62,010 bases of DNA from Gammaproteobacteria bacterium (GTDB taxonomy: Bacteria; Pseudomonadota; Gammaproteobacteria; S012-40), in NCBI GenBank assembly GCA_029884425.1, contig JAOUHV010000012.1, positions 1-62,010 of the forward strand, read 5' to 3'. Numbering within the stretch: position 1 is the first letter of the stretch; every line of letters starts with the position of its first letter. The notes below the pieces were generated by a model, which saw only the letters and a program-made list of their open reading frames with translations, was not told the origin of the DNA and ran no database searches. The position numbers and the translations under genes are program-made. Shown piece after piece: positions 13,841 to 29,308 of the stretch.

Positions 13841-13847
13841 CTTGAGT

Positions 13848-15011
13848 ATGGAAATCAATATTTACGTCTTGTATGGTTTGGTAGAAGCAGTCATTGTACT
13901 GGCCGCCCTGGTTGTCTATCTTTATTTTCGCCAACGCAAACTCAAGACATATGCGCTAGCCCAGGTTGATGAGCGGGAGTTCCACAAGCGTTATTTCAAA
14001 AAGCTGATCAAAGAAACCCGTGATTACGCCAAAAAACTCAACGCCCCTGCCGAGGCGGGCGACAATACCGCAATAAAATATCGCCAACACATGGTCGCCC
14101 GTCTCAATTGGCTGTCCCTTGAACGAGATTTTGTCTGTATAGAAAAACCTAACGATACTTACTGGACCAATATCAACAGAAAAATTGCTCAACTTCTCAA
14201 TCGCTGGCAACAAGCCGACTTGGTTGATGGGCCACCCGATACGCGCATCATTGATCAAATGATAGAAAACAGCGAGCTGATTGATGACACCCAAATCGAG
14301 CATCATCACAATAAAAACTCGGTTGAGATCAACTATGATTCGCAAGCTCAAAAAGAAATTGAAAAATTGAAGAAACAACTTCGCAACCTTAACGGCTACA
14401 AAGCACTGTACCATTCCCAGCAAAATGCCTACGCCAAAATGGTCGACTCCTACAAGAAGCTCAAGCATTCACTAACTGAACTCGAGCTTGAATCTGGTAA
14501 TTCTGAAAAACTCCGCAAGCTGCTCTCCCAGCATGAAATGACCGAAAACATGATGGAAGATCAAATGAAGGAAATGGAGAAACAGCAAGAGCGTCTGAAT
14601 GCAGAACTGCAACAACTGGAAGCTGTATTTAATTTACAGCAACAGGAACTGGACAAGCAGTTTGAAGAAAAACCCACTGAACAGCCACCCGCAGAACCAA
14701 GTGCACCTCTACCCGAGAAAGAACTCGATCAGGTCCATGCTTTGATCGACCAGCAAAATAGCGCCATCCGCGAACTAAAAACCACCGTTCTAAGCCTGAA
14801 TGTCGAAACCGATGTTCGCCTTGAACTAGAAGAACACTTGGATAAAATCGAGAAAAACAGCAGCGAACTGCAAACCTGCCTGCAAATGCTGGAACTGGAA
14901 CGCGAGCGCCTCAACAGCGAACTAACCAACATGCGCCACGACGAAACCGTCGACGTGTCCAACATGCTCAACAATCTAGATGGGCTGGATGATCCAGCGC
15001 CGGGGAAATAG
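13848..15011 (+). CDS. Membrane-anchored coiled-coil protein
   Basis: A 387-residue protein with one N-terminal transmembrane segment (~7-26, VEAVIVLAALVVYLYF) followed by RQRKLK, so the rest is predicted cytoplasmic. A basic helical region (~40-105) precedes long heptad-rich coiled coils (~155-275 and ~295-370, rich in E, Q, L, K). It starts just after the vWA gene, with little ribosome site of its own, so translation is probably coupled. A TTG six bases upstream is an alternative start. No known family recognised. It may link the acidic tail of the vWA protein to a cytoplasmic partner; that is inference. Confidence 0.75.
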   Translation: MEINIYVLYGLVEAVIVLAALVVYLYFRQRKLKTYALAQVDEREFHKRYFKKLIKETRDYAKKLNAPAEAGDNTAIKYRQHMVARLNWLSLERDFVCIEKPNDTYWTNINRKIAQLLNRWQQADLVDGPPDTRIIDQMIENSELIDDTQIEHHHNKNSVEINYDSQAQKEIEKLKKQLRNLNGYKALYHSQQNAYAKMVDSYKKLKHSLTELELESGNSEKLRKLLSQHEMTENMMEDQMKEMEKQQERLNAELQQLEAVFNLQQQELDKQFEEKPTEQPPAEPSAPLPEKELDQVHALIDQQNSAIRELKTTVLSLNVETDVRLELEEHLDKIEKNSSELQTCLQMLELERERLNSELTNMRHDETVDVSNMLNNLDGLDDPAPGK

Positions 15012-15033
15012 TTAGTCATCCCATCTCTGCACC

Positions 15034-15059
15034 GGGCCGCCACAACGATGTGGCGACCC
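15034..15059. terminator. Inverted repeat between two convergent genes
   Basis: GGGcCGCCAC-AACGAT-GTGGCGaCCC forms a stem with one mismatch in the 63-bp gap between the coiled-coil gene and the RHS gene. No T-run follows on either strand, so a bidirectional terminator role is only suggested by position. Confidence 0.35.
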
Positions 15060-15074
15060 AGCACACTGGCGAAA

Positions 15075-18000
15075 CTAAAGCTTCATCCCACCACACAATT
15101 GCCCGGCAATTTTAGCTTCGGCCTTGAGCGGAATATCAAAGGTTGTGGAATCCAGACCTTTGTAATTACCTTCGGTAATACCTTCAAATTTGCCTTTGAA
15201 AGGTCCAACTTTGATCGATGGATCGATACTGAAACAATCGCCCACGCCACCGATCTCAACACCGGCACCGAATGGTCCCAGGCCCACTTCGCCGACAATG
15301 GAAGGTTTGATATCCACATCTCCCACGGCCTCATTGGGATCAATATCCAGGCTGCCGCCTATGCCAAATCCCACCTCGCCACAAATCTTGAAGCCGGTAC
15401 TATCGATGGTAAGGCGTAAACCGCCACCCACACCGTCGTAAAGTGAACCACCAACGCTGAATAGCCCACTGGGGTCGGTGTGATTCACCGGATCATTTCC
15501 CACGTAGCTGTAGAAATTGAGCTGACGGCCATCATAGAGCGCCGGATCACGCGCCACCCAACGGCCCGCAGCGGGATCGTAATCGCGGAAGCCCATGCGC
15601 AACAAACCGGTCACAGGATCGGCCAAGCCACCAGCAAAACCAATCGGCAATACCAAGGTAGGATCGCTGTCGTTTAACACGCGACCATAGCTGTCGTAGC
15701 TAATGGTTTTGAGTACACTGCCATTGCTGTCTGCCAGCACGCGTGGCGTCCCTAGACCATCGCTGCCAACGTAGGTGTACGTCGACCCTTGCTGAATCGC
15801 AATCAACACACCACGCTGATCATAGTGATACACACTGAGCACATTGGTCGATGAACGCGAAGCCGTCAGTTGCAACGGATTATTCGGATTCGCGTAGAGA
15901 TACTGCGTGAGTTTACCCGCTTCGGTGCGACTGATGCGCCGTCCCAATCCATCGTATTGATAGGTCACGGTGGTACCAGCAACCGTCGCGGACAACAACT
16001 CACCACGCGCACTGTAGACAAACGTGTCGCTGCCACGTTGTTGCAACATGCCGTTGGCGTTGAACTGGTAATTCACACCGTTAAGCGTCAACATCCGATC
16101 TTGTGCGTCGTACGTTGCTGACGGCAAATTGCGATTACCATTCAGATCGTATGCATAGCTTTCCAGCGTGGCGCTGCCTTCTTTTACTGTCACCAGTTGG
16201 CCGTCGGCGTCATAGAGATAGTCCTTGGTGTGACTATCACCATTGACTGTTTCGCTGAGTCGCGCCAAGCGTCGACTGCTGCCGTAGTCCATCGACGATT
16301 GATAGAGCACCACGTTATTGACTTTGACGCTGCGATTATTTATCCGTCCCTGGCTGTTGTAGGCAAGATCGATGACCAGCTTATTGTCATCGCTGTTAAT
16401 TTGACTGACCGATCCCGCCGGTCCATTGCGAGTGAAATTAAACACACCTTGTTTGGTCACCACGCCATCGTCATCGCGAGTGATAGCAACGTTCAACACA
16501 TTGCCACCAATCGATGCGAGCTGCATGCGATTGTCGTAACCGTAGGTGAAGCTGCCGGTGGCAACGCCCGTCCAGTTCATTGCCGTTAAAAATTCCGCAT
16601 CGTAACTCAGACCAATCGTTTGCATCGCGCCAACGCTGGGCGTGCTCTTGATGCTGCTAATGCGCTGCGTTGCATCGCTGTAATCAAAGTTCACCGTTGC
16701 ATCGCTGTAATTGCGTCCGGTTGTTCGACCACCGTTATCATAGCTGGCGTTGAGTATGCTGCCATCCAGCAAGGTACTCTGAACCCAGTCACCATCCAGA
16801 TTGTAGCCATAACTCAATTCGGCACTGCTGTCGGCTGGACTGTATGCCGCATCAAGATTATTTGCCGTGTATTTCAGCACATGAATTTTGCCGTTAGGCA
16901 TGATGACATTGGTCGCATTGCCGTTGGCGTCATAGGCAAATTGATAGGCTCGCCCGCTGGGCAAGGTAAGCCTGGTCATGCGATCTGCTGCGTCGTATTG
17001 ATACGCGGTGCGATGGCCGGCGTTATCCTCGACACTGATCAAACGGTTGAGATGATCGTAACTCAGCGTATTGCTGAGACTACCCTGAGTGATGTTCGAC
17101 AACCGCCCCTTGTTGTCATAACTGCGAGCCACCGCATCAATCTGAGCAGCGATTTGTGTTCCGCTTAAACGCCCCAGTTCATCCAGCGTAAAACGGAATT
17201 GTCGCCCTTGCGCCGAACTGAGTGTAAACACGCGGCTCGCTGCATCGTAATGCAATGTGCGTGTTTTGCCATTTTCGGTGAGCGTGTCATTCATACTCAC
17301 CAGACTCCACGGATTGCTTGCATCAGTCAGTTCGACGCTGCGTTTCAATTCCAGCGTACGCGTCAAACCGGCTTTCGTAGTAACCACCACGCGACCAACA
17401 TACGGATTACTCCAACGTGGATCGACATCAAACTGGTACAGTGCCGTACTGCCATTGGCGGCGTTCACCTCAATATCGCCATTGGAGCGCAACATGGTCA
17501 CGGTGATTGCACCGCTAGGATCAATTTCCGTACTGCGCACTTCACCGCTGGCCATCGCTTCAGTTTGATAGCTGTGCGCTCGGCCTTCTGCACTGGTCAG
17601 CGTAATCGTACTGCCTTGCGGCTGCACCAAACGCGTCAGCGTCAGACTGCCACCATCTGGATTGCTGTCTTTGCTGAGTCGACCGCGAGTGTCGTACTCA
17701 AAGAGGTGCTCGCCGCCTTTAGGTTCCGTTAAATTGGTGAGCAATCCGCGTGCATCGTAGTCAAGACTATACGAATCACCCACCGGGTTGCTGACAGCGG
17801 TGACCTGACCATCACCGTCAGTCGTCAATTCGGTGCGTTGTCCACCTGGCGCCACAATCGCGGTAGGCACACCACCGCTGCGTTCGATCAACGTTTCGTT
17901 ACCGCTGGCATCGGTTATTTTGCTCAAATGGCCGTCGCTGTCATAACTAAACTGGTATCGCACCGCGCCGGTAAAGCTGTCGCGCGTCTGCGTATGTCGA

Positions 18001-20918
18001 CCAAACTCGTCGAATTCATAGACCTTGCGTCTATCACTCGAAAGCATGGGTTTGCGGCCCGTAATATCCGCAAACAAATAAGAGTCAGCCATCACCGCAC
18101 GAATTCGCCGGTTGCCGTTATCGGCGATGTATAGACGGTTGTTGGCGCCAACGGCGATCACGTCTGGATAATTAAGCAACGCATCGCCGGCGTTACTGCC
18201 ATCGCCAGCGTAACCGGACTTATGAGAATACGGGTTTTCCAGATCAACATACCCTGCGACGACCACCAGTTTGCCTTCCTGGTTGATACGATAAACTTGG
18301 TGGTATTCACCCACAGAAAGATACACACTGCCGTCTGGGCCAACCGCTATGCCACCTATCGCCGTGCTTATTACTGCTTCCTTGGCCAACGCATCGGGTG
18401 CAAATGCCCCGATCAAGGGCGCGGGATCATAGGGACTGGCACCCGCCAAACGAACAACCGCGCCATCCGTACCCAACTTGCAAAGCAACGAACCATAGTA
18501 ACCCGCATTGGCACTGTAAATCAGCGAACCATCCCCGCCCATCGCCAGGTACTGTGGTGACACACGTGCATCGTAGTTGCCGCAATCGGCCCCCTGCCCA
18601 CCATTGCCGAGCAACGTTGTGATTACACCATCGGTGCCCACCCGCCGCAGGCGATTGCCATCCACGAAATACACCGTACCATCTGTGCCAACGGTAACCG
18701 CCTTCGGTAGCTCCAAGCCGGCATCAATCGCCAAACCACCATCGCCAGTGGACTCAAATGGACCGGCGTTATAATCGGCTGGCGCCTTGCCGGCCACGGT
18801 GTGCAGATTACCTGCAGTATCCACCCGGAAAATGCGCTTGTGCCAAGCATCGGCGATGTACAAACTGCCATCCTTGCCCATAGCCAATCCGCCAGGGAAT
18901 GGGGTGAGATAGGTATCAGTAGCCGGACCACCTTCGGCGACAGCTTTAAAGTCGTAGTTATAGCCGTTGCCAACAAAGATGGGCGGCGCTCTGCCAGCCA
19001 CCGTAGACAATAATCCATCGGCGGCCACCCGGCGTATGCCGGTGTCGCCGTGGGAGTAATACACCGCGCCATCAGCGCCTACCGCCATCGCCCAGATGTT
19101 ATGCATTTTGGCACTAAGCGCATTACCACCATCATCGGCAGCGTCAAAACCACTGACGCCACTGCCTGCCAGTGGTTTGATCAAATTACGCCGCTCATCG
19201 TTGCGGTCGCCATTGCCTAGCAACATTTCCATGGTGTACGGCGAATACTGATGCTGTACGTCCAGACTCCAGCCTGGCAGATTAAGGCCATCATGTACCA
19301 GTCTGCCGACCGTGGTGTCGTACACCGTCCACAGGGTAACTTCGATTCGATCTCGGTCGCCACTGATCGGTTGGCCGTCGCCGTTGTAACCAAACCGACT
19401 GGTTTTTTGGTAAACGCCCTTGTAGGTGTAGCCCACCCGCACATTCAGTTTCTGCCGGCCATTTAACTCACGGCCATAAGCGTCCTTACCATCGAAGACA
19501 AATTCGTAGGACAACCCCGTCTGCGGCAAAAATTGCTTGGTTTCGCTCTGCCCGGCGACACTCAACTGCAGCTCAACGCTTTTTAGTGAGGCAGGATAGC
19601 TGTCACCGATCAAGGGAATATTGATGACATTGCGCGCCTCGGCCACCTGATTGCTGTTGTAATGCAGCGTGAATGGCGTGCCAGTGACCGGCAACACTTC
19701 GCCCAGCGACTGGTCTTCACAGCGGATGACCGAGCCACAGCGCTTGTGGTTGTTCAGCACCGGATTGGGATTAATGTGTGGCGGGCGGGTCGCGTCTGAG
19801 GGCGGACCAAACGGCCAGTTCATGTCCCAGGACGAGAAGTGCTTCAATGGTACCCGCCACAGGATTTTGCCGGCGGTGTACAGGCCAGCCAGTTTCTGTA
19901 ATTCTTCGGCATCCACGCCAATGCTGCTAGCGTCATCGGCCAAACCATCACCATCGATGTCCAGCGTCGCACTGCCGCCGTCCACGCTGAGAACCTGGAT
20001 GATCACACCACTTTCTTCGGCAATCCATTGGCCTTTGAGCCGGTCGTAATACCCCACTGGCACCGGAATGCCCACCGGAAAACCGAGAAAGTTGTCCACA
20101 TACACCGGCACAGGCTGGCTGAACTTCACGGTTTCCGCACCTACCGCAATCGCCTGATCCAGGCTGAATTCAGCCGCGTAGGTGTAACCACTGTTGGCCG
20201 GCAGCTCCGCCGGCATGGCCTTGGGACCATTCTCACCGACAGTGTATTCGGTGACGCGCACGTTGATTTCGTTCAGCGGCTGTTCACTGCCATCAGGCAA
20301 TACCAGGCTGGCCGTGGTGCCTGAGGGAAACAGCACCGTCGCCTGACGCGTGCCGTCGACATCAGTCATTTCGCTGCCGCGCGCGACCTTCATCCCCGGC
20401 GTATTCAAAAACAGCTTGGTCATCTGCGGGTCCAACGCCAACATGATCACTTCGTCAGCTACCACGTAATCCTGCCAGGGCGTGGCGACATCGCGCTGCA
20501 CCGGCAGCAATCCGGTTTTTTGGTAGTGAATGGTCAGCTGACTGCCACCATTGACCGCCATGTCGAACATGCCGTCGTCCTGGGTATGGGTCTGGCCAAA
20601 TTCTGGGTGGCCTAGCACCGTGATGTTGACGCCGGAGATGGGTTGCAGGTCTTTGTCCAGCACCCTGCCGCGCACGATCACCACCCGTTCCTCGACGATG
20701 GTGCCGGGAAGCACGCCAGTCTGCACCGGATTGGCGCCGCTGTAGAGAAACGCCGTAGACTCAAGCAAATTGCTGCCCGACGGCGTGTCGATCGGTGTGG
20801 GCGGATTGTGATCACCAGCGCTGTCACCCGAACCGCCGCTGCAAGCCAGCAAACTGCTGTACAACAGAGCAATCACCAAAAACTTGGTCAAGCGTAAGGC
20901 AAAACTGGTGGAAATCAT
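15075..20918 (-). CDS. Giant RHS/YD-repeat lipoprotein with NHL propeller (teneurin-like)
   Basis: A 1947-residue surface or periplasmic protein. A lipoprotein signal ends at Cys26 (SSLLACSGG). A carboxypeptidase-regulatory-like fold spans ~80-145. A beta-rich stretch follows, with a calcium-loop-like DIDGDGLADD at ~320. A second beta-rich segment lies at ~395-600 and begins CGSVIRCEDQ. Six NHL blades (~605-945) each read VGxDGxVY...RRV...L.TVAG. YD repeats run from ~955 to 1790 (for example YDANGNATNV, YQYDGLGRRISR). The RHS core end MGFRDYDPAAGRWVARDP...YSYVGNDPVNHTDPSG precedes a 127-residue Gly-rich tip (1821-1947) that resembles no toxin I know. No immunity gene follows. It is downstream of a BTAD regulator gene. 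Confidence 0.9.
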   Translation of the reverse strand: MISTSFALRLTKFLVIALLYSSLLACSGGSGDSAGDHNPPTPIDTPSGSNLLESTAFLYSGANPVQTGVLPGTIVEERVVIVRGRVLDKDLQPISGVNITVLGHPEFGQTHTQDDGMFDMAVNGGSQLTIHYQKTGLLPVQRDVATPWQDYVVADEVIMLALDPQMTKLFLNTPGMKVARGSEMTDVDGTRQATVLFPSGTTASLVLPDGSEQPLNEINVRVTEYTVGENGPKAMPAELPANSGYTYAAEFSLDQAIAVGAETVKFSQPVPVYVDNFLGFPVGIPVPVGYYDRLKGQWIAEESGVIIQVLSVDGGSATLDIDGDGLADDASSIGVDAEELQKLAGLYTAGKILWRVPLKHFSSWDMNWPFGPPSDATRPPHINPNPVLNNHKRCGSVIRCEDQSLGEVLPVTGTPFTLHYNSNQVAEARNVINIPLIGDSYPASLKSVELQLSVAGQSETKQFLPQTGLSYEFVFDGKDAYGRELNGRQKLNVRVGYTYKGVYQKTSRFGYNGDGQPISGDRDRIEVTLWTVYDTTVGRLVHDGLNLPGWSLDVQHQYSPYTMEMLLGNGDRNDERRNLIKPLAGSGVSGFDAADDGGNALSAKMHNIWAMAVGADGAVYYSHGDTGIRRVAADGLLSTVAGRAPPIFVGNGYNYDFKAVAEGGPATDTYLTPFPGGLAMGKDGSLYIADAWHKRIFRVDTAGNLHTVAGKAPADYNAGPFESTGDGGLAIDAGLELPKAVTVGTDGTVYFVDGNRLRRVGTDGVITTLLGNGGQGADCGNYDARVSPQYLAMGGDGSLIYSANAGYYGSLLCKLGTDGAVVRLAGASPYDPAPLIGAFAPDALAKEAVISTAIGGIAVGPDGSVYLSVGEYHQVYRINQEGKLVVVAGYVDLENPYSHKSGYAGDGSNAGDALLNYPDVIAVGANNRLYIADNGNRRIRAVMADSYLFADITGRKPMLSSDRRKVYEFDEFGRHTQTRDSFTGAVRYQFSYDSDGHLSKITDASGNETLIERSGGVPTAIVAPGGQRTELTTDGDGQVTAVSNPVGDSYSLDYDARGLLTNLTEPKGGEHLFEYDTRGRLSKDSNPDGGSLTLTRLVQPQGSTITLTSAEGRAHSYQTEAMASGEVRSTEIDPSGAITVTMLRSNGDIEVNAANGSTALYQFDVDPRWSNPYVGRVVVTTKAGLTRTLELKRSVELTDASNPWSLVSMNDTLTENGKTRTLHYDAASRVFTLSSAQGRQFRFTLDELGRLSGTQIAAQIDAVARSYDNKGRLSNITQGSLSNTLSYDHLNRLISVEDNAGHRTAYQYDAADRMTRLTLPSGRAYQFAYDANGNATNVIMPNGKIHVLKYTANNLDAAYSPADSSAELSYGYNLDGDWVQSTLLDGSILNASYDNGGRTTGRNYSDATVNFDYSDATQRISSIKSTPSVGAMQTIGLSYDAEFLTAMNWTGVATGSFTYGYDNRMQLASIGGNVLNVAITRDDDGVVTKQGVFNFTRNGPAGSVSQINSDDNKLVIDLAYNSQGRINNRSVKVNNVVLYQSSMDYGSSRRLARLSETVNGDSHTKDYLYDADGQLVTVKEGSATLESYAYDLNGNRNLPSATYDAQDRMLTLNGVNYQFNANGMLQQRGSDTFVYSARGELLSATVAGTTVTYQYDGLGRRISRTEAGKLTQYLYANPNNPLQLTASRSSTNVLSVYHYDQRGVLIAIQQGSTYTYVGSDGLGTPRVLADSNGSVLKTISYDSYGRVLNDSDPTLVLPIGFAGGLADPVTGLLRMGFRDYDPAAGRWVARDPALYDGRQLNFYSYVGNDPVNHTDPSGLFSVGGSLYDGVGGGLRLTIDSTGFKICGEVGFGIGGSLDIDPNEAVGDVDIKPSIVGEVGLGPFGAGVEIGGVGDCFSIDPSIKVGPFKGKFEGITEGNYKGLDSTTFDIPLKAEAKIAGQLCGGMKL

Positions 20919-20987: not shown

Positions 20988-22508
20988 CTACTCGCTGTCT
21001 CGCGACGACTTGTTCAGAAGATCCTGACCTGATTCAAAACATGCGGTGGCCAAGCGCACCAACGCCCCCGGCAAACCATCGCAGCGCTGATGTAATGTCT
21101 GGGTATCGCCGTTTGAATCGATGCCCATGGACGCCAACAACTCGCCAAAGGTGTCAACCCCCAGCGGCGCAAGAGAAATGAACGCGACCATGCCCGTTTC
21201 CACCGCCGCGGTCAGCGCCTGCCTGGCCTGCGGGTCGAGCAAATCCTCTTGCAGACAGACAACCGTACGCATGCCATCCAACCGCCCCCAATATTGCGAG
21301 CTGACAAAATGGCCGGCCTCAATGCTCGCCAAATCAGAATAATGCAGATCATCAATCAGCACATGGCGCATACCCGCCGCAACCGCCAACCGAGTCGCCT
21401 CGGCCTTGGCCTGGTAGAAACGCAGTTTTTGTTCAGCCTCACGCACCGGCCCCGGACTAACACCCAACTCGGGGAGAATACGCGCCAGCTCGTTACGCAC
21501 CCACGTCGGTAACTCAATTTCGGGAAAGGCCTGGAGCAGCTCACGATACGTTCGCGCATGGGCGGCATAGGGAACATCGTGATCGGCAGGACGTGTTCTG
21601 AAAGCGTAGAAACGCCCCTTGCTGGCCAGAAACTCGCGCGCCAGCCGCGTTTTACCCACCCCCAACGGCCCGGCAAGAAAAATCGCCTGACCTTTTTGCC
21701 AGGCCTGCTCCATCAGTCGCCAAACATCGGCGCGACCAATCAGGCTTGGCGGATGCGACACGCTGGGCGGGATAGTTGATGCCACTGCCGGCGGCGACAC
21801 AATCAATCCTGCACTGATGTCGCGTGCCAGAGCCTGCGTCTGCGGCATGGGATCAAGATCAAGTTCGCGACGCAGCAACGTCACAAAACGCTGATAGGCA
21901 TTGAGCGCCGCCGCCCGGTCATCCATGTTGAAGTGCGCCTGCATCAAGCGTCGCCAGGCATCTTCAGAAAGCGGTTCAGTTTCCACCAAACGTTGCGCCA
22001 TACCGAGGGCTTCGCGGTATGCGCCATCTCGCTGATAATTGTCGTACAGTATGGCCAGAGAGCGCTGTTTTAGTCGCAAAAATTGATCGTTATGCCGCTG
22101 CAGCCAAAAAGAAAACTCGGGACAGTCATCGTAGTACAGACCAGACAGCAGCGCGGTGCTGCACACGGCCACTTTTTCGTGCTCACCCTGCAGATGCTGC
22201 ATTTCCAACTGTTTGCAATCCACCACCCAGTGCGGCGTCAACGCCAGCGTCTCGGCTGTTTGAAACAAGGGCGTATCGCCGCACTGGGCTTTAAGGCGTC
22301 GCATGGTTTGCGACAAATTATTTCGCGCAGTTGCCTCGGCAGAGTCCGGCCACAACAAGCCTGCCAGTTGACTGCGGCTGGCCGGGCCATGCAACGCAAG
22401 AAAAGCGACCAGTGCCGCTGCTTTGCGCTCCAATAAAAATGGCGAAGCGCCTGCTGGTTGCAGCTGCGCTTCGCCAATCAAGATGATTTGGTTAACGGTA
22501 AATTCCAA
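20988..22508 (-). CDS. BTAD-domain (SARP/AfsR-like) transcriptional regulator with AAA ATPase
   Basis: A 506-residue predicted transcriptional activator. An OmpR-type winged helix spans ~1-95 (RKAAALVAFLALHG...LAGLLWPDS...ARNNLSQTMRRL). It is followed by a bacterial transcriptional activation (BTAD) TPR domain (~98-240, ending ELDLDPMPQTQALARD). A linker leads to a STAND/AAA-like domain with Walker A GPLGVGKTRLAREFL (~277). No C-terminal LuxR or TPR array is present, so it is shorter than AfsR or MalT. The start is a TTG at 22508; a stop codon four codons upstream excludes a longer form in frame. Probable target is the adjacent RHS gene. Confidence 0.85.
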   Translation of the reverse strand: MEFTVNQIILIGEAQLQPAGASPFLLERKAAALVAFLALHGPASRSQLAGLLWPDSAEATARNNLSQTMRRLKAQCGDTPLFQTAETLALTPHWVVDCKQLEMQHLQGEHEKVAVCSTALLSGLYYDDCPEFSFWLQRHNDQFLRLKQRSLAILYDNYQRDGAYREALGMAQRLVETEPLSEDAWRRLMQAHFNMDDRAAALNAYQRFVTLLRRELDLDPMPQTQALARDISAGLIVSPPAVASTIPPSVSHPPSLIGRADVWRLMEQAWQKGQAIFLAGPLGVGKTRLAREFLASKGRFYAFRTRPADHDVPYAAHARTYRELLQAFPEIELPTWVRNELARILPELGVSPGPVREAEQKLRFYQAKAEATRLAVAAGMRHVLIDDLHYSDLASIEAGHFVSSQYWGRLDGMRTVVCLQEDLLDPQARQALTAAVETGMVAFISLAPLGVDTFGELLASMGIDSNGDTQTLHQRCDGLPGALVRLATACFESGQDLLNKSSRDSE

Positions 22509-26888: not shown

Positions 26889-28667
26889 ATGGACATGATG
26901 AATTTTAAGCGTCGCGCCCCAGCCAAGATCGCATCTGCCCTGCTGTTAGCCTCGGCTATTCTGGCGCAGGCCGGCTGCATTCTGCCCGAACGGGCCAAGG
27001 ACGACCCACCTCCGGCAGCCAGTACCTTGCCAACCGTCAAGATTCGTTTCCTCACTTGGGATCCGACGGCGTTAAACCCCTATCCAGAACTCACCGTAGA
27101 TACAACCACCGGCTATTTCAGCCTAAACGAAACATCCCCCGTTGGCGACGCCTCTCGTGTGGTCATCATCGCCTTCAACCTGATTGGCGATTACCCAGCA
27201 GACATCCCTGCTGACCAACGTGCCCGCCTGGAAATGAAATTTGCCAAGGAAAGCTCCGCAACCCCCCTGCAAGATTTCAACGTCGTCGGCACATCATCCC
27301 CAAGCCTCATTAACACCGTTATGTTTTACCGCCCCGATGAGGCCGCCGCCTTGGCCGTCGACCCACTATGCCCCGACCCCATTCGCCAAGCCATTGCCGC
27401 CGATAATTGCCGCATCATCAATATCACCGACGACAAGGTTCACGAGCGCATGGCAATTATCAAAAACAACCGCATCGAAGAATTGCGCATGGAAGATTTT
27501 GCCATCTATTTCCAGGCCGAATTTCATGTACAGTTAGAGGCTAATAACAAAAAACCTAGCCTGTTTTACATCGTCGACGACGACCCCGAACCCAGCATCA
27601 GCATTTCGTTGCCCGGCTATTTGTACGTTGGCGGCAAATACCAGATCAGCGAAAGTATCCCCCAGATCCCGTTTGAAATTAAATTACTCAACGGCCAATT
27701 GACCGAGTGGCCTATATTTATTCCGATTCTGTACTCGGGAACTGCAGAAACACAGGTGGATTACGTTCCGCTAAACGACTTAACTTTCGCCCCAAAGGAC
27801 GACAACGGCTATTTCAATTCGGTCTACACCGGATACATCCAACTCAACGATGACATTTTGGGCGAAGCCAACGATGACGATACCCTCATCATTACCCTGG
27901 GCACACCGACCAACGGCGTGCTAGCCACCGACGGCTCCCCCACCTCCGTCCAAATCTCCATTACTGACAACGAAGGAACCGGAACAGTCAATCCCACCGT
28001 CGCCAATCGCTGCATTGACCCCAACCTGGATAGCTCATCGTCGTATTTTGTCCCCACTACAGCATTGAGGGATTGCAATACCTACAATACCGTCAATTAC
28101 CAGGACGGTCATCAGTCAGCAGGGGCCATTTTCGATTTTACGCCATCCTCAACCGGTGAATGCGTACTGGACAATCGCACTGGGCTGGTCTGGGAAATCA
28201 AATCGACTGTCACCAACAGCTACCGTCAAGATTCTGAGTACAGTTGGTACAACACATCCACCAACAGCAATGGCGGTCACCCTGGCAGCGAAGGCCAAGC
28301 TACAGGCTGCGGAGGTATCCCCGGCATGTGCAACACCAGCGATTACGTTAGTGCCGTCAATAGCGACGGTGCCCCGTTATGCGGCTTCAACGATTGGCGC
28401 CTGCCCACCGCCGTAGAACTCTATGGCCTGGTAAGTTTTGACACCTTCGGCACCAACCAAATGCATCTCCCGCCAAATTTTACAAACAAGCGTGCGCAAT
28501 ACTGGACCAGCACTCCGGTCGCCAGTGACCCGGAAAAAGCTTGGGCAGTCGATTTCGTTACCGGGCAACTGCTGCCTATCAAAAAATACGATCCGAATTC
28601 CGCAGCCATCAAAGGTGCTGCGATTATGCTTGTACGTGCAAAGCTACCAAGCGAGGTGCTGCCATGA
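26889..28667 (+). CDS. Lipoprotein with Calx-beta-like and C-terminal Lcl_C (DUF1566) domains
   Basis: A 592-residue predicted lipoprotein. The signal region ends at Cys30 (ASAILAQAGC). A beta-rich N-terminal half holds a Calx-beta-like segment at about 220-370 (SGTAETQVDYVPL...LNDDILGEANDDDTLIITL...SVQISITDNEG). This is usually a calcium-binding repeat in surface adhesins. The C-terminal Lcl_C/DUF1566 domain (about 420-585) carries LDNRTGLVWE, FNDWRLPTAVEL and YWTSTPV. Lcl_C occurs in Legionella collagen-like adhesins and many secreted proteins. The next gene overlaps by 4 bp (ATGA) and has the same C-terminal domain. ATGs at 26895 and 26898 are alternative starts. Confidence 0.8.
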   Translation: MDMMNFKRRAPAKIASALLLASAILAQAGCILPERAKDDPPPAASTLPTVKIRFLTWDPTALNPYPELTVDTTTGYFSLNETSPVGDASRVVIIAFNLIGDYPADIPADQRARLEMKFAKESSATPLQDFNVVGTSSPSLINTVMFYRPDEAAALAVDPLCPDPIRQAIAADNCRIINITDDKVHERMAIIKNNRIEELRMEDFAIYFQAEFHVQLEANNKKPSLFYIVDDDPEPSISISLPGYLYVGGKYQISESIPQIPFEIKLLNGQLTEWPIFIPILYSGTAETQVDYVPLNDLTFAPKDDNGYFNSVYTGYIQLNDDILGEANDDDTLIITLGTPTNGVLATDGSPTSVQISITDNEGTGTVNPTVANRCIDPNLDSSSSYFVPTTALRDCNTYNTVNYQDGHQSAGAIFDFTPSSTGECVLDNRTGLVWEIKSTVTNSYRQDSEYSWYNTSTNSNGGHPGSEGQATGCGGIPGMCNTSDYVSAVNSDGAPLCGFNDWRLPTAVELYGLVSFDTFGTNQMHLPPNFTNKRAQYWTSTPVASDPEKAWAVDFVTGQLLPIKKYDPNSAAIKGAAIMLVRAKLPSEVLP

Positions 28668-29308
28668 TGCGCACGCGCATCGTCAATACTCTTTTACTCT
28701 GCCTGTTGCCAAGCATTTCGCTGGCGCAACTCTGCAATAGCAGCAGCATTCTGGAATCCACGCCCGCAGCGAATTTCGTCACCGCCATCCCTGCCGTTGA
28801 CCCAACGGGAAAATATGCTGCAATTACCACCCCTCTTCCCTCAAATGGAGAAGAAGTGCTGGACTTGACAACCGGCCTGGTTTGGCAACGCTGCAGCAAG
28901 GGCCAGACCTGGATTGCCGATCAACATCGCTGCGCTGGCATCCCCCTAAAATATACTTGGAAAGATGCGCTGGCGCTTAGCAGCACAACAAGCAAATGGC
29001 GTGTGCCAAACATCAAAGAGCTGACATCGCTAATCGACTTCCGCTGCCAGGCACCACCGCTAAACCCCGAAATTTTTCCTGATACACCAGCATCGGTCAT
29101 CACACTGATTGGTGGCACCAGCTACTATGGTACTGGCTACTGGAGTTCCACCCCCAACCTGTCACCAGGCACAGATTCATCAATGCCAAAAATTGGCGCA
29201 TGGATCATGGATTTGAACACCGGTTCGCCCATGCTGTTTTCCGTCGAGGCCAATAACACCTCTATTGTCTATGCCAAACATTTTGTCCGATTGGTTCGTA
29301 GCAACTAG
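28664..29308 (+). CDS. Secreted Lcl_C (DUF1566) domain protein
   Basis: A 214-residue exported protein. The ATG at 28664 overlaps the previous stop by 4 bp and follows GAGG. The first residues form a signal peptide (MMRTRIVNTLLLCLLPSISLA). The mature protein is essentially one Lcl_C domain: LDLTTGLVWQRC, WRVPNIKELTSLIDFRC, YWSSTPN, AWIMDLNTG and the ending HFVRLVRS. Several Cys residues suggest disulfides. It is translationally coupled to the Calx-beta/Lcl_C lipoprotein and may act with it at the cell surface; the exact role is unknown. Confidence 0.85.
   Translation: MMRTRIVNTLLLCLLPSISLAQLCNSSSILESTPAANFVTAIPAVDPTGKYAAITTPLPSNGEEVLDLTTGLVWQRCSKGQTWIADQHRCAGIPLKYTWKDALALSSTTSKWRVPNIKELTSLIDFRCQAPPLNPEIFPDTPASVITLIGGTSYYGTGYWSSTPNLSPGTDSSMPKIGAWIMDLNTGSPMLFSVEANNTSIVYAKHFVRLVRSN

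What the first reader, a model, noticed from the sequence alone, without database searches (positions are those of the whole stretch)
15075..20918. Bacterial lipoprotein with the domain order of a teneurin ectodomain
The 1947-residue product reads lipobox, carboxypeptidase-regulatory (transthyretin-like) domain, beta-rich 'plug' region, six-blade NHL propeller, YD/RHS shell, RHS core end. Animal teneurins have TTR, FN-plug, NHL, YD shell, ABD, Tox in the same order. RHS toxins usually lack the inserted NHL propeller and TTR domain, and are exported by type VI or VII systems rather than lipid-anchored. A lipid-anchored prokaryotic relative could be an adhesion or contact protein.
Basis: partly seen in the sequence, partly recalled or inferred. 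Interest (0 to 1): 0.8.

Follow-up and report, generated by a model that had tools for sequence, protein, structure and literature searches.

The report
Bacterial teneurin-like lipoprotein, probable toxin
The gene encodes a lipid-anchored bacterial relative of animal teneurins, a real member of a family already described in 2018 and 2026 as shell-enclosed bacterial toxins, and is unusual mainly in having no protective immunity gene beside it.

Summary
Window 15075-20918 (-) is one intact 1947-codon gene. Its order is lipobox (LLAC26-S), teneurin TTR domain, TIP domain, FN-plug, NHL, YD shell, RHS core, then a 128-residue C-terminal domain (CTD). It aligns along nearly its whole length with the solved Bacillus teneurin-like protein (TLP; 9ifo/9pt5, about 1415 bits) and with animal teneurins (E about 1e-131). 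The idea is not new: bacterial TLPs were reported in 2018 and characterised in 2026 as polymorphic toxins, including Sec/SPII lipoprotein versions in Gram-negatives. My best reading is an anchored TLP toxin carrying a glycine-rich, probably membrane-acting CTD, rather than a dedicated adhesin. Two features are unusual. No plausible immunity gene follows; a hairpin and a conserved convergent gene fill the space. The closest relative, whose CTD is homologous, also lacks one. Also, TIP ends in H-[FLM]-[ST] in all 23 TLPs compared, resembling GAIN/ZU5 autoproteolysis sites; my homology test for that was inconclusive.

The parts
15075..20918 (-). teneurin-like protein (TLP) gene, 1947 aa
   Evidence: intact ORF; about 1415 bits to the solved bacterial TLP 9pt5/9ifo
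20841..20918 (-). signal peptide and lipobox LLAC26, Ser at +2
   Evidence: sequence reading; not tested with a signal-peptide predictor
20439..20693 (-). TTR-like domain, residues 76-160
   Evidence: Pfam PF25020 E 8.7e-26; best structural hits are teneurin TTR domains
19803..20429 (-). TIP domain, residues about 164-372, present in bacterial TLPs and absent from animal teneurins
   Evidence: region 61-393 matches BiTLP 382-709 at 411 bits while animal teneurin matches stop after the TTR; TIP profile finds only the two BiTLP entries in the PDB
19833..19841 (-). H360-F361-S362 at the end of TIP; H-[FLM]-[ST] in 23 of 23 TLPs
   Evidence: resemblance to the GAIN/ZU5 autoproteolysis tripeptide is a lead only
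19731..19736 (-). G395-S396, aligned with the experimentally seen plug cleavage G723|S724 of BiTLP
   Evidence: alignment; [GA]-[SC] in all 23 TLPs; cleavage site reported in PMC13018210
19119..19733 (-). FN-plug region, residues 396-600
   Evidence: Pfam FN-plug_TEN1-4 25.7 bits, just below its cut-off; continuous alignment with BiTLP and teneurins
18084..19118 (-). NHL propeller, residues 601-945
   Evidence: Pfam TEN_NHL E 2.8e-29
15474..18083 (-). YD shell, residues 946-1815
   Evidence: Pfam TEN_YD-shell E 1.9e-67
15462..15698 (-). RHS core with self-cleavage residues R1778, D1791 (DPAL), D1815 (DPSGL)
   Evidence: Rhs_assc_core E 3.3e-20; motif and spacing as in BiTLP R2103/D2116/D2140
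15078..15461 (-). C-terminal domain, residues 1820-1947, glycine-rich (23% G)
   Evidence: homologous to the CTD of the TLP in L108 (34% identity, E 3.2e-7); no Pfam or significant PDB match
15022..15069 (-). strong hairpin between the TLP stop and the convergent gene, probably a transcription end
   Evidence: -38.9 kcal/mol, z -5.8
13842..15011 (+). convergent conserved gene (389 aa) occupying the place where an immunity gene would be expected
   Evidence: conserved in 8 of the 12 other genomes of the family; shadow ORF on its other strand rejected
20988..22508 (-). BTAD/AAA_16 (SARP/AfsR-like) regulator 69 bp upstream, same strand; possible regulator of the TLP
   Evidence: Pfam BTAD E 3.4e-18; not seen in the 0-2.4 kb of upstream DNA held for other TLPs

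Best explanation
This is a lipid-anchored member of the bacterial teneurin-like protein family, working as a polymorphic toxin carrier. Shown by sequence: lipobox, teneurin superfold, RHS aspartyl self-cleavage residues, the aligned plug cleavage site, and a separate CTD. Inferred: the protein is exported by Sec, lipidated and held at the outer membrane (Ser at +2). It cuts itself after residue 1819 and keeps the 128-residue CTD inside the YD shell, perhaps tied to the plug by a disulfide (C394 or C400 with a CTD cysteine), as C719-C2216 in BiTLP. On contact or damage the glycine-rich beta-type CTD is released and acts on membranes of neighbouring cells. Delivery and trigger are unknown, as for the whole family.
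For: Near full-length match to BiTLP, whose CTD is encapsulated, cleaved and membrane-permeabilising in E. coli when exported. Cleavage residues R1778, D1791 and D1815 present with identical spacing. Plug site [GA]-[SC] in all 23 TLPs. The CTD belongs to a family found on four TLPs and one other RHS protein with a much shorter frame, so it looks like an exchangeable module. In three of the five (L106, L126, L110) the next gene is a small predicted membrane protein, which fits immunity to a membrane-acting toxin. No T6SS sheath in the genome.
Against: No adjacent immunity gene here or beside the nearest relative L108, whereas the published model has one beside almost every TLP. Structure prediction of the CTD failed (pLDDT 31), so its fold and activity are unknown. 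Membrane action is inferred from analogy and from neighbours' membrane proteins. Surface exposure and lipidation were not tested. CTD homology to L106, L110 and L126 is weak and composition-biased.
Confidence: 0.65

Rival explanations
1. It is an adhesion or contact protein whose CTD is no longer toxic; the teneurin superfold is the working part, as in animals. The missing immunity gene is then explained because none is needed.
For: No plausible immunity gene next to the window TLP or next to L108, the closest relative (tree support 1.0) with a homologous CTD. CTD and body have diverged to a similar degree between the two (37% and 37-62% identity), as if not exchanged.
Against: All residues for self-cleavage and encapsulation are kept, although animal teneurins lost them (PMC13018210, PMC5851990). 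Related CTDs have candidate immunity genes. The N-terminus lacks the added adhesion domains typical of other TLPs.
Confidence: 0.2
2. Ordinary RHS/YD toxin of the T6SS or Tc kind that only resembles a teneurin by sharing RHS and NHL repeats.
For: RHS core and YD repeats match T6SS Rhs and TcC structures at lower scores.
Against: TLP score is about 1415 bits against 112 bits for the best RHS effector; teneurin-specific TTR, NHL and YD Pfam models all match; Sec lipobox; no VipB in the genome.
Confidence: 0.03
3. A sub-case of the toxin reading: the immunity gene has been lost or lies elsewhere, or the toxin is aimed only at other kinds of cells so that the producer needs none.
For: Same facts as the toxin reading; immunity gene absent at the locus and no homologue of the L106 candidate in the genome (best E 0.135).
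Against: Immunity proteins are highly diverse, so the genome search has little power; two TLPs sharing the lack suggests a stable state rather than recent loss.
Confidence: 0.3

Closest known systems
Bacterial teneurin-like proteins (TLPs), prototype Bacillus inaquosorum BiTLP (PDB 9ifo, 9pt5; PMC13018210)
   Same: TTR, TIP, FN-plug, NHL, YD shell, RHS core in the same order; same self-cleavage residues and spacing; aligned plug cleavage site; short CTD of 128 residues
   Different: lipobox instead of the long N-terminal region with Ig-like domains; the alignment ends where the CTD begins, so the CTD is of another kind; no adjacent immunity gene
Animal teneurins (for example Ten2, PDB 6fb3)
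   Same: TTR, FN-plug, NHL, YD shell in the same order; E about 1e-131
   Different: animal proteins lack TIP and RHS self-cleavage, and carry a transmembrane segment, EGF repeats and ABD/Tox-GHH; the window protein lacks these
T6SS Rhs effectors and TcB/TcC toxins
   Same: YD shell and RHS core
   Different: no teneurin TTR, TIP or FN-plug; other export routes; far lower similarity
RHS polymorphic toxins with N-terminal ZU5 autoproteolytic domains (Zhang et al. 2012, PMC3482391)
   Same: N-terminal domain ahead of a propeller and RHS repeats; TIP ends in H-F-S
   Different: profile comparison of TIP with bacterial ZU5 domains not significant

Membership tests
[quoted passage not shown]
   TEN_NHL and TEN_YD-shell over cut-off; FN-plug 25.7 bits against a cut-off of 27.8, but the region aligns continuously with BiTLP and teneurins
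Bacterial teneurin-like protein (TLP) | TTR domain followed by TIP domain | tested here: met
Bacterial teneurin-like protein (TLP) | RHS core self-cleavage motif (Arg plus two Asp, DPxG) | tested here: met
   R1778, D1791 (DPAL, the Leu variant the paper allows), D1815 (DPSG)
Bacterial teneurin-like protein (TLP) | Sec signal; SPII lipoprotein in Gram-negatives | tested here: met
   lipobox LLAC|S by reading the sequence; no signal-peptide predictor was available
Bacterial teneurin-like protein (TLP) | immunity gene immediately downstream (almost all members) | tested here: not met
   a usual but not universal feature, so membership stands on the superfold
Animal teneurin | EGF repeats before the TTR, ABD and Tox-GHH after the shell | tested here: not met
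   no such Pfam matches in the 1947 aa
T6SS Rhs effector | T6SS in the genome | tested here: not met
   no VipB match in own genome, control E. coli positive
ZU5/GAIN autoproteolytic superfamily (for TIP) | detectable profile similarity to ZU5 | tested here: inconclusive
   hhalign probability below 1%, no better than shuffled controls, but the ZU5 profile held only 2-3 close sequences
ZU5/GAIN autoproteolytic superfamily (for TIP) | self-cleavage at H-F|S | not testable with these tools
   tripeptide present in 23 of 23 as H-[FLM]-[ST]
Published 'OMP-type' TLP CTD (Paenibacillus oryzisoli, Desulfosudis oleivorans) | predicted outer-membrane-protein-like beta fold | tested here: inconclusive

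The most novel reading that the evidence does not exclude
The TIP domain, for which I found no published fold assignment, is a GAIN/ZU5-type self-cleaving domain (H360-F361|S362). The lipid-anchored TTR-TIP piece would then hold the plug and shell non-covalently, and release by pulling apart would replace a secretion machine, mechanically like GAIN receptors such as latrophilin, the animal teneurin partner.
Probability: 0.15. Interest if true: 0.7.

Novelty: new member of a known kind. Interest (0 to 1): 0.3.

Why it matters
Bacterial TLPs are the presumed source of animal teneurins, so each well-defined member helps to show what the ancestor did. This one has a minimal form (anchor, TTR, TIP, superfold, CTD) and no neighbouring immunity gene, which makes it a good case for asking whether all TLPs are toxins. 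The conserved H-[FLM]-[ST] in TIP suggests a simple test of how the shell might be released.

Tried and rejected
Immunity gene: a 111-aa same-strand ORF (14729-15064) starts 10 bp after the stop, but it is the shadow of the conserved gene 13842-15011 (codon-position GC 0.33/0.62/0.62; its only good hit lies antisense to the same gene in G001). A homologue of the L106 candidate immunity protein elsewhere in the genome: best E 0.135. AlphaFold2 of the CTD alone: pLDDT 31, unusable. Model of residues 61-393 from two sequences: pLDDT 50, usable only for the TTR; TIP was barely tested by the structural comparison, so no match there shows nothing. TIP against ZU5 by hhalign: not significant. CTD against Pfam, PHROGs and PDB: nothing significant. 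Defence-system library: nothing. The search for related loci on genome contigs returned RHS relatives only, so TLPs were taken from whole-genome searches. Surface lipoprotein translocon SLAM: no match in own genome, but the controls did not ring either, so uninformative. No RNA family at the locus. Organism not identified; nearby DarP, PepN, PEP-utilising and ExoVII genes fit a gammaproteobacterium, which is inference.

Full report
Observation. The ORF at 15075-20918 (-) is real, 1947 codons from ATG with no internal stop. Pfam assigns teneurin-specific models to the TTR domain (76-159, E 8.7e-26), NHL (E 2.8e-29) and YD shell (962-1795, E 1.9e-67), with the FN-plug just below its cut-off (25.7 against 27.8 bits); NCBIfam adds the RHS core at 1741-1819. 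Against solved structures the two best hits are the bacterial Teneurin-like protein (9pt5, 9ifo; about 1415 bits, E 0), followed by animal teneurins (teneurin-2, E 6.4e-131, residues 400-1813), and only far below by T6SS Rhs effectors (112 bits) and Tc toxins.

Corrections. Residues about 164-372 form the TIP domain found in bacterial TLPs: the stretch 61-393 matches BiTLP 382-709 at 411 bits, whereas animal teneurin matches end with the TTR. A profile of TIP from eight TLPs finds only the two BiTLP entries in the PDB. The plug starts near residue 396. After the RHS core comes a separate 128-residue CTD. A low-confidence model of residues 61-393 still puts residues about 75-157 on teneurin TTR domains, with the five best structural hits all teneurins (Z 8.2-7.3, about 2.5 A over 77-80 residues); Z near 8 alone would not be decisive, but it agrees with the sequence match.

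What is already known. [quoted passage not shown] PMC13018210 (2026) gave cryo-EM structures of BiTLP, 139 TLP-positive genomes in six phyla, Sec/SPII lipoprotein prediction for Gram-negative TLPs, self-cleavage at the RHS core and in the plug (G723|S724), an encapsulated CTD, toxicity of several CTDs in E. coli and immunity genes immediately downstream of almost all TLPs. The window gene is a new member of this family.

Mechanistic residues. R1778, D1791 (in DPAL, the Leu variant the paper mentions) and D1815 (DPSGL) match BiTLP R2103, D2116 and D2140 in identity and spacing, so cleavage after L1819 is expected. G395-S396 aligns with the experimentally observed plug cut; in 23 aligned TLPs the pair is [GA]-[SC] throughout. 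C394 or C400 and CTD cysteines C1846, C1895 and C1942 could reproduce the plug-CTD disulfide of BiTLP; this is inference. The N-terminus has a lipobox with Ser at +2, pointing to the outer membrane by the Lol rule (established knowledge; no predictor was run). By eye or motif scan only three of the relatives fetched (L105, L108, L123) also show a lipobox, the rest having SPI-like or cut N-termini. The genome has no VipB T6SS sheath gene.

Relatives. Of the genomes compared in the class, 29 of 369 match the teneurin TTR model, 24 above its cut-off. Twenty-two complete or partial TLPs were read. The closest is L108 (G165; 1301 bits, about 40% identity); the two form a clade with support 1.0. Their CTDs are homologous (34%, E 3.2e-7). 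Weaker relatives of the CTD sit on TLPs L106 and L110 and on L126, an RHS protein whose 1189-codon frame is too short for a whole TLP. All are 22-25% glycine, and the scores between the window CTD and these three are marginal, so this wider grouping is tentative. In L106 and L126 the next gene encodes a 142-156 aa protein with three to four predicted membrane segments, and in L110 a 120-aa protein with one. That is consistent with immunity against a membrane-acting toxin, but those genes were not tested.

Missing immunity gene. In 15 of the 17 relatives with a readable C-terminus an ORF of at least 60 aa begins within 200 bp on the same strand; L108 and L104 (whose CTD is only 36 residues) are the exceptions (these are mechanical ORFs). 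In the window, 63 bp separate the TLP stop from a convergent gene and contain a strong hairpin (-38.9 kcal/mol, z -5.8). The convergent gene is conserved in 8 of the 12 other family genomes, and the only same-strand ORF is its shadow. Thus neither the window TLP nor its closest relative has an adjacent immunity gene. L108 lies near a contig end, with 1046 bp of downstream DNA read. This is the one respect in which the locus departs from the published picture; whether it means a non-toxic CTD, an unlinked immunity gene or a toxin aimed elsewhere is open.

TIP lead. All 23 TLPs have H-[FLM]-[ST] at the C-terminal end of TIP (H360-F361-S362 here). This is the tripeptide of GAIN (HL|T) and ZU5/FIIND (HF|S) self-cleavage (own knowledge; ZU5 domains at the N-terminus of RHS toxins are described in PMC3482391). 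A profile comparison with bacterial ZU5 domains was not significant, and scanning TIP against Pfam gave no ZU5 match. The ZU5 profile was thin and the TIP model poor, so the question stays open. BiTLP has the same HFS, and PMC13018210 reports no cut there in the text read.

Verdict. Ordinary in kind, well supported as a member of a recently described and interesting family. Interest 0.3; the TIP idea and the absent immunity gene are the parts worth a follow-up.

Noticed in passing
L142:8099-15715 (IMGVR_UViG_3300005261_000054): A 2539-codon TLP frame lies on a contig classed as viral, beside phage-like genes on the other strand; probably the host flank of a prophage.
   Followed up: partly
NZ_CP109481.1:2119697-2124985: A 2.35 Mb Streptomyces replicon listed as a plasmid carries a TLP with no listed annotation (33% identity over 91% of the window protein).
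   Followed up: no
L112, L118, L120, L121, L124: Arrays of orphan RHS-core fragments (110-660 codon frames) follow several TLPs, like the silent toxin cassettes of Rhs loci.
   Followed up: no
window 20988-22508 (-): BTAD/AAA_16 (SARP/AfsR-like) regulator directly upstream of the TLP on the same strand; not found in the short upstream stretches of other TLPs.
   Followed up: partly
window 26889-29308 (+): Two neighbouring proteins each with an Lcl_C domain.
   Followed up: no
window 19731-19733 (residue 396) and equivalents in the TLP alignment: The residue after the plug cut is Ser in some TLPs and Cys in others, which suggests a nucleophile; the passages of the paper that I read mention only the conserved Ser.
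   Followed up: no
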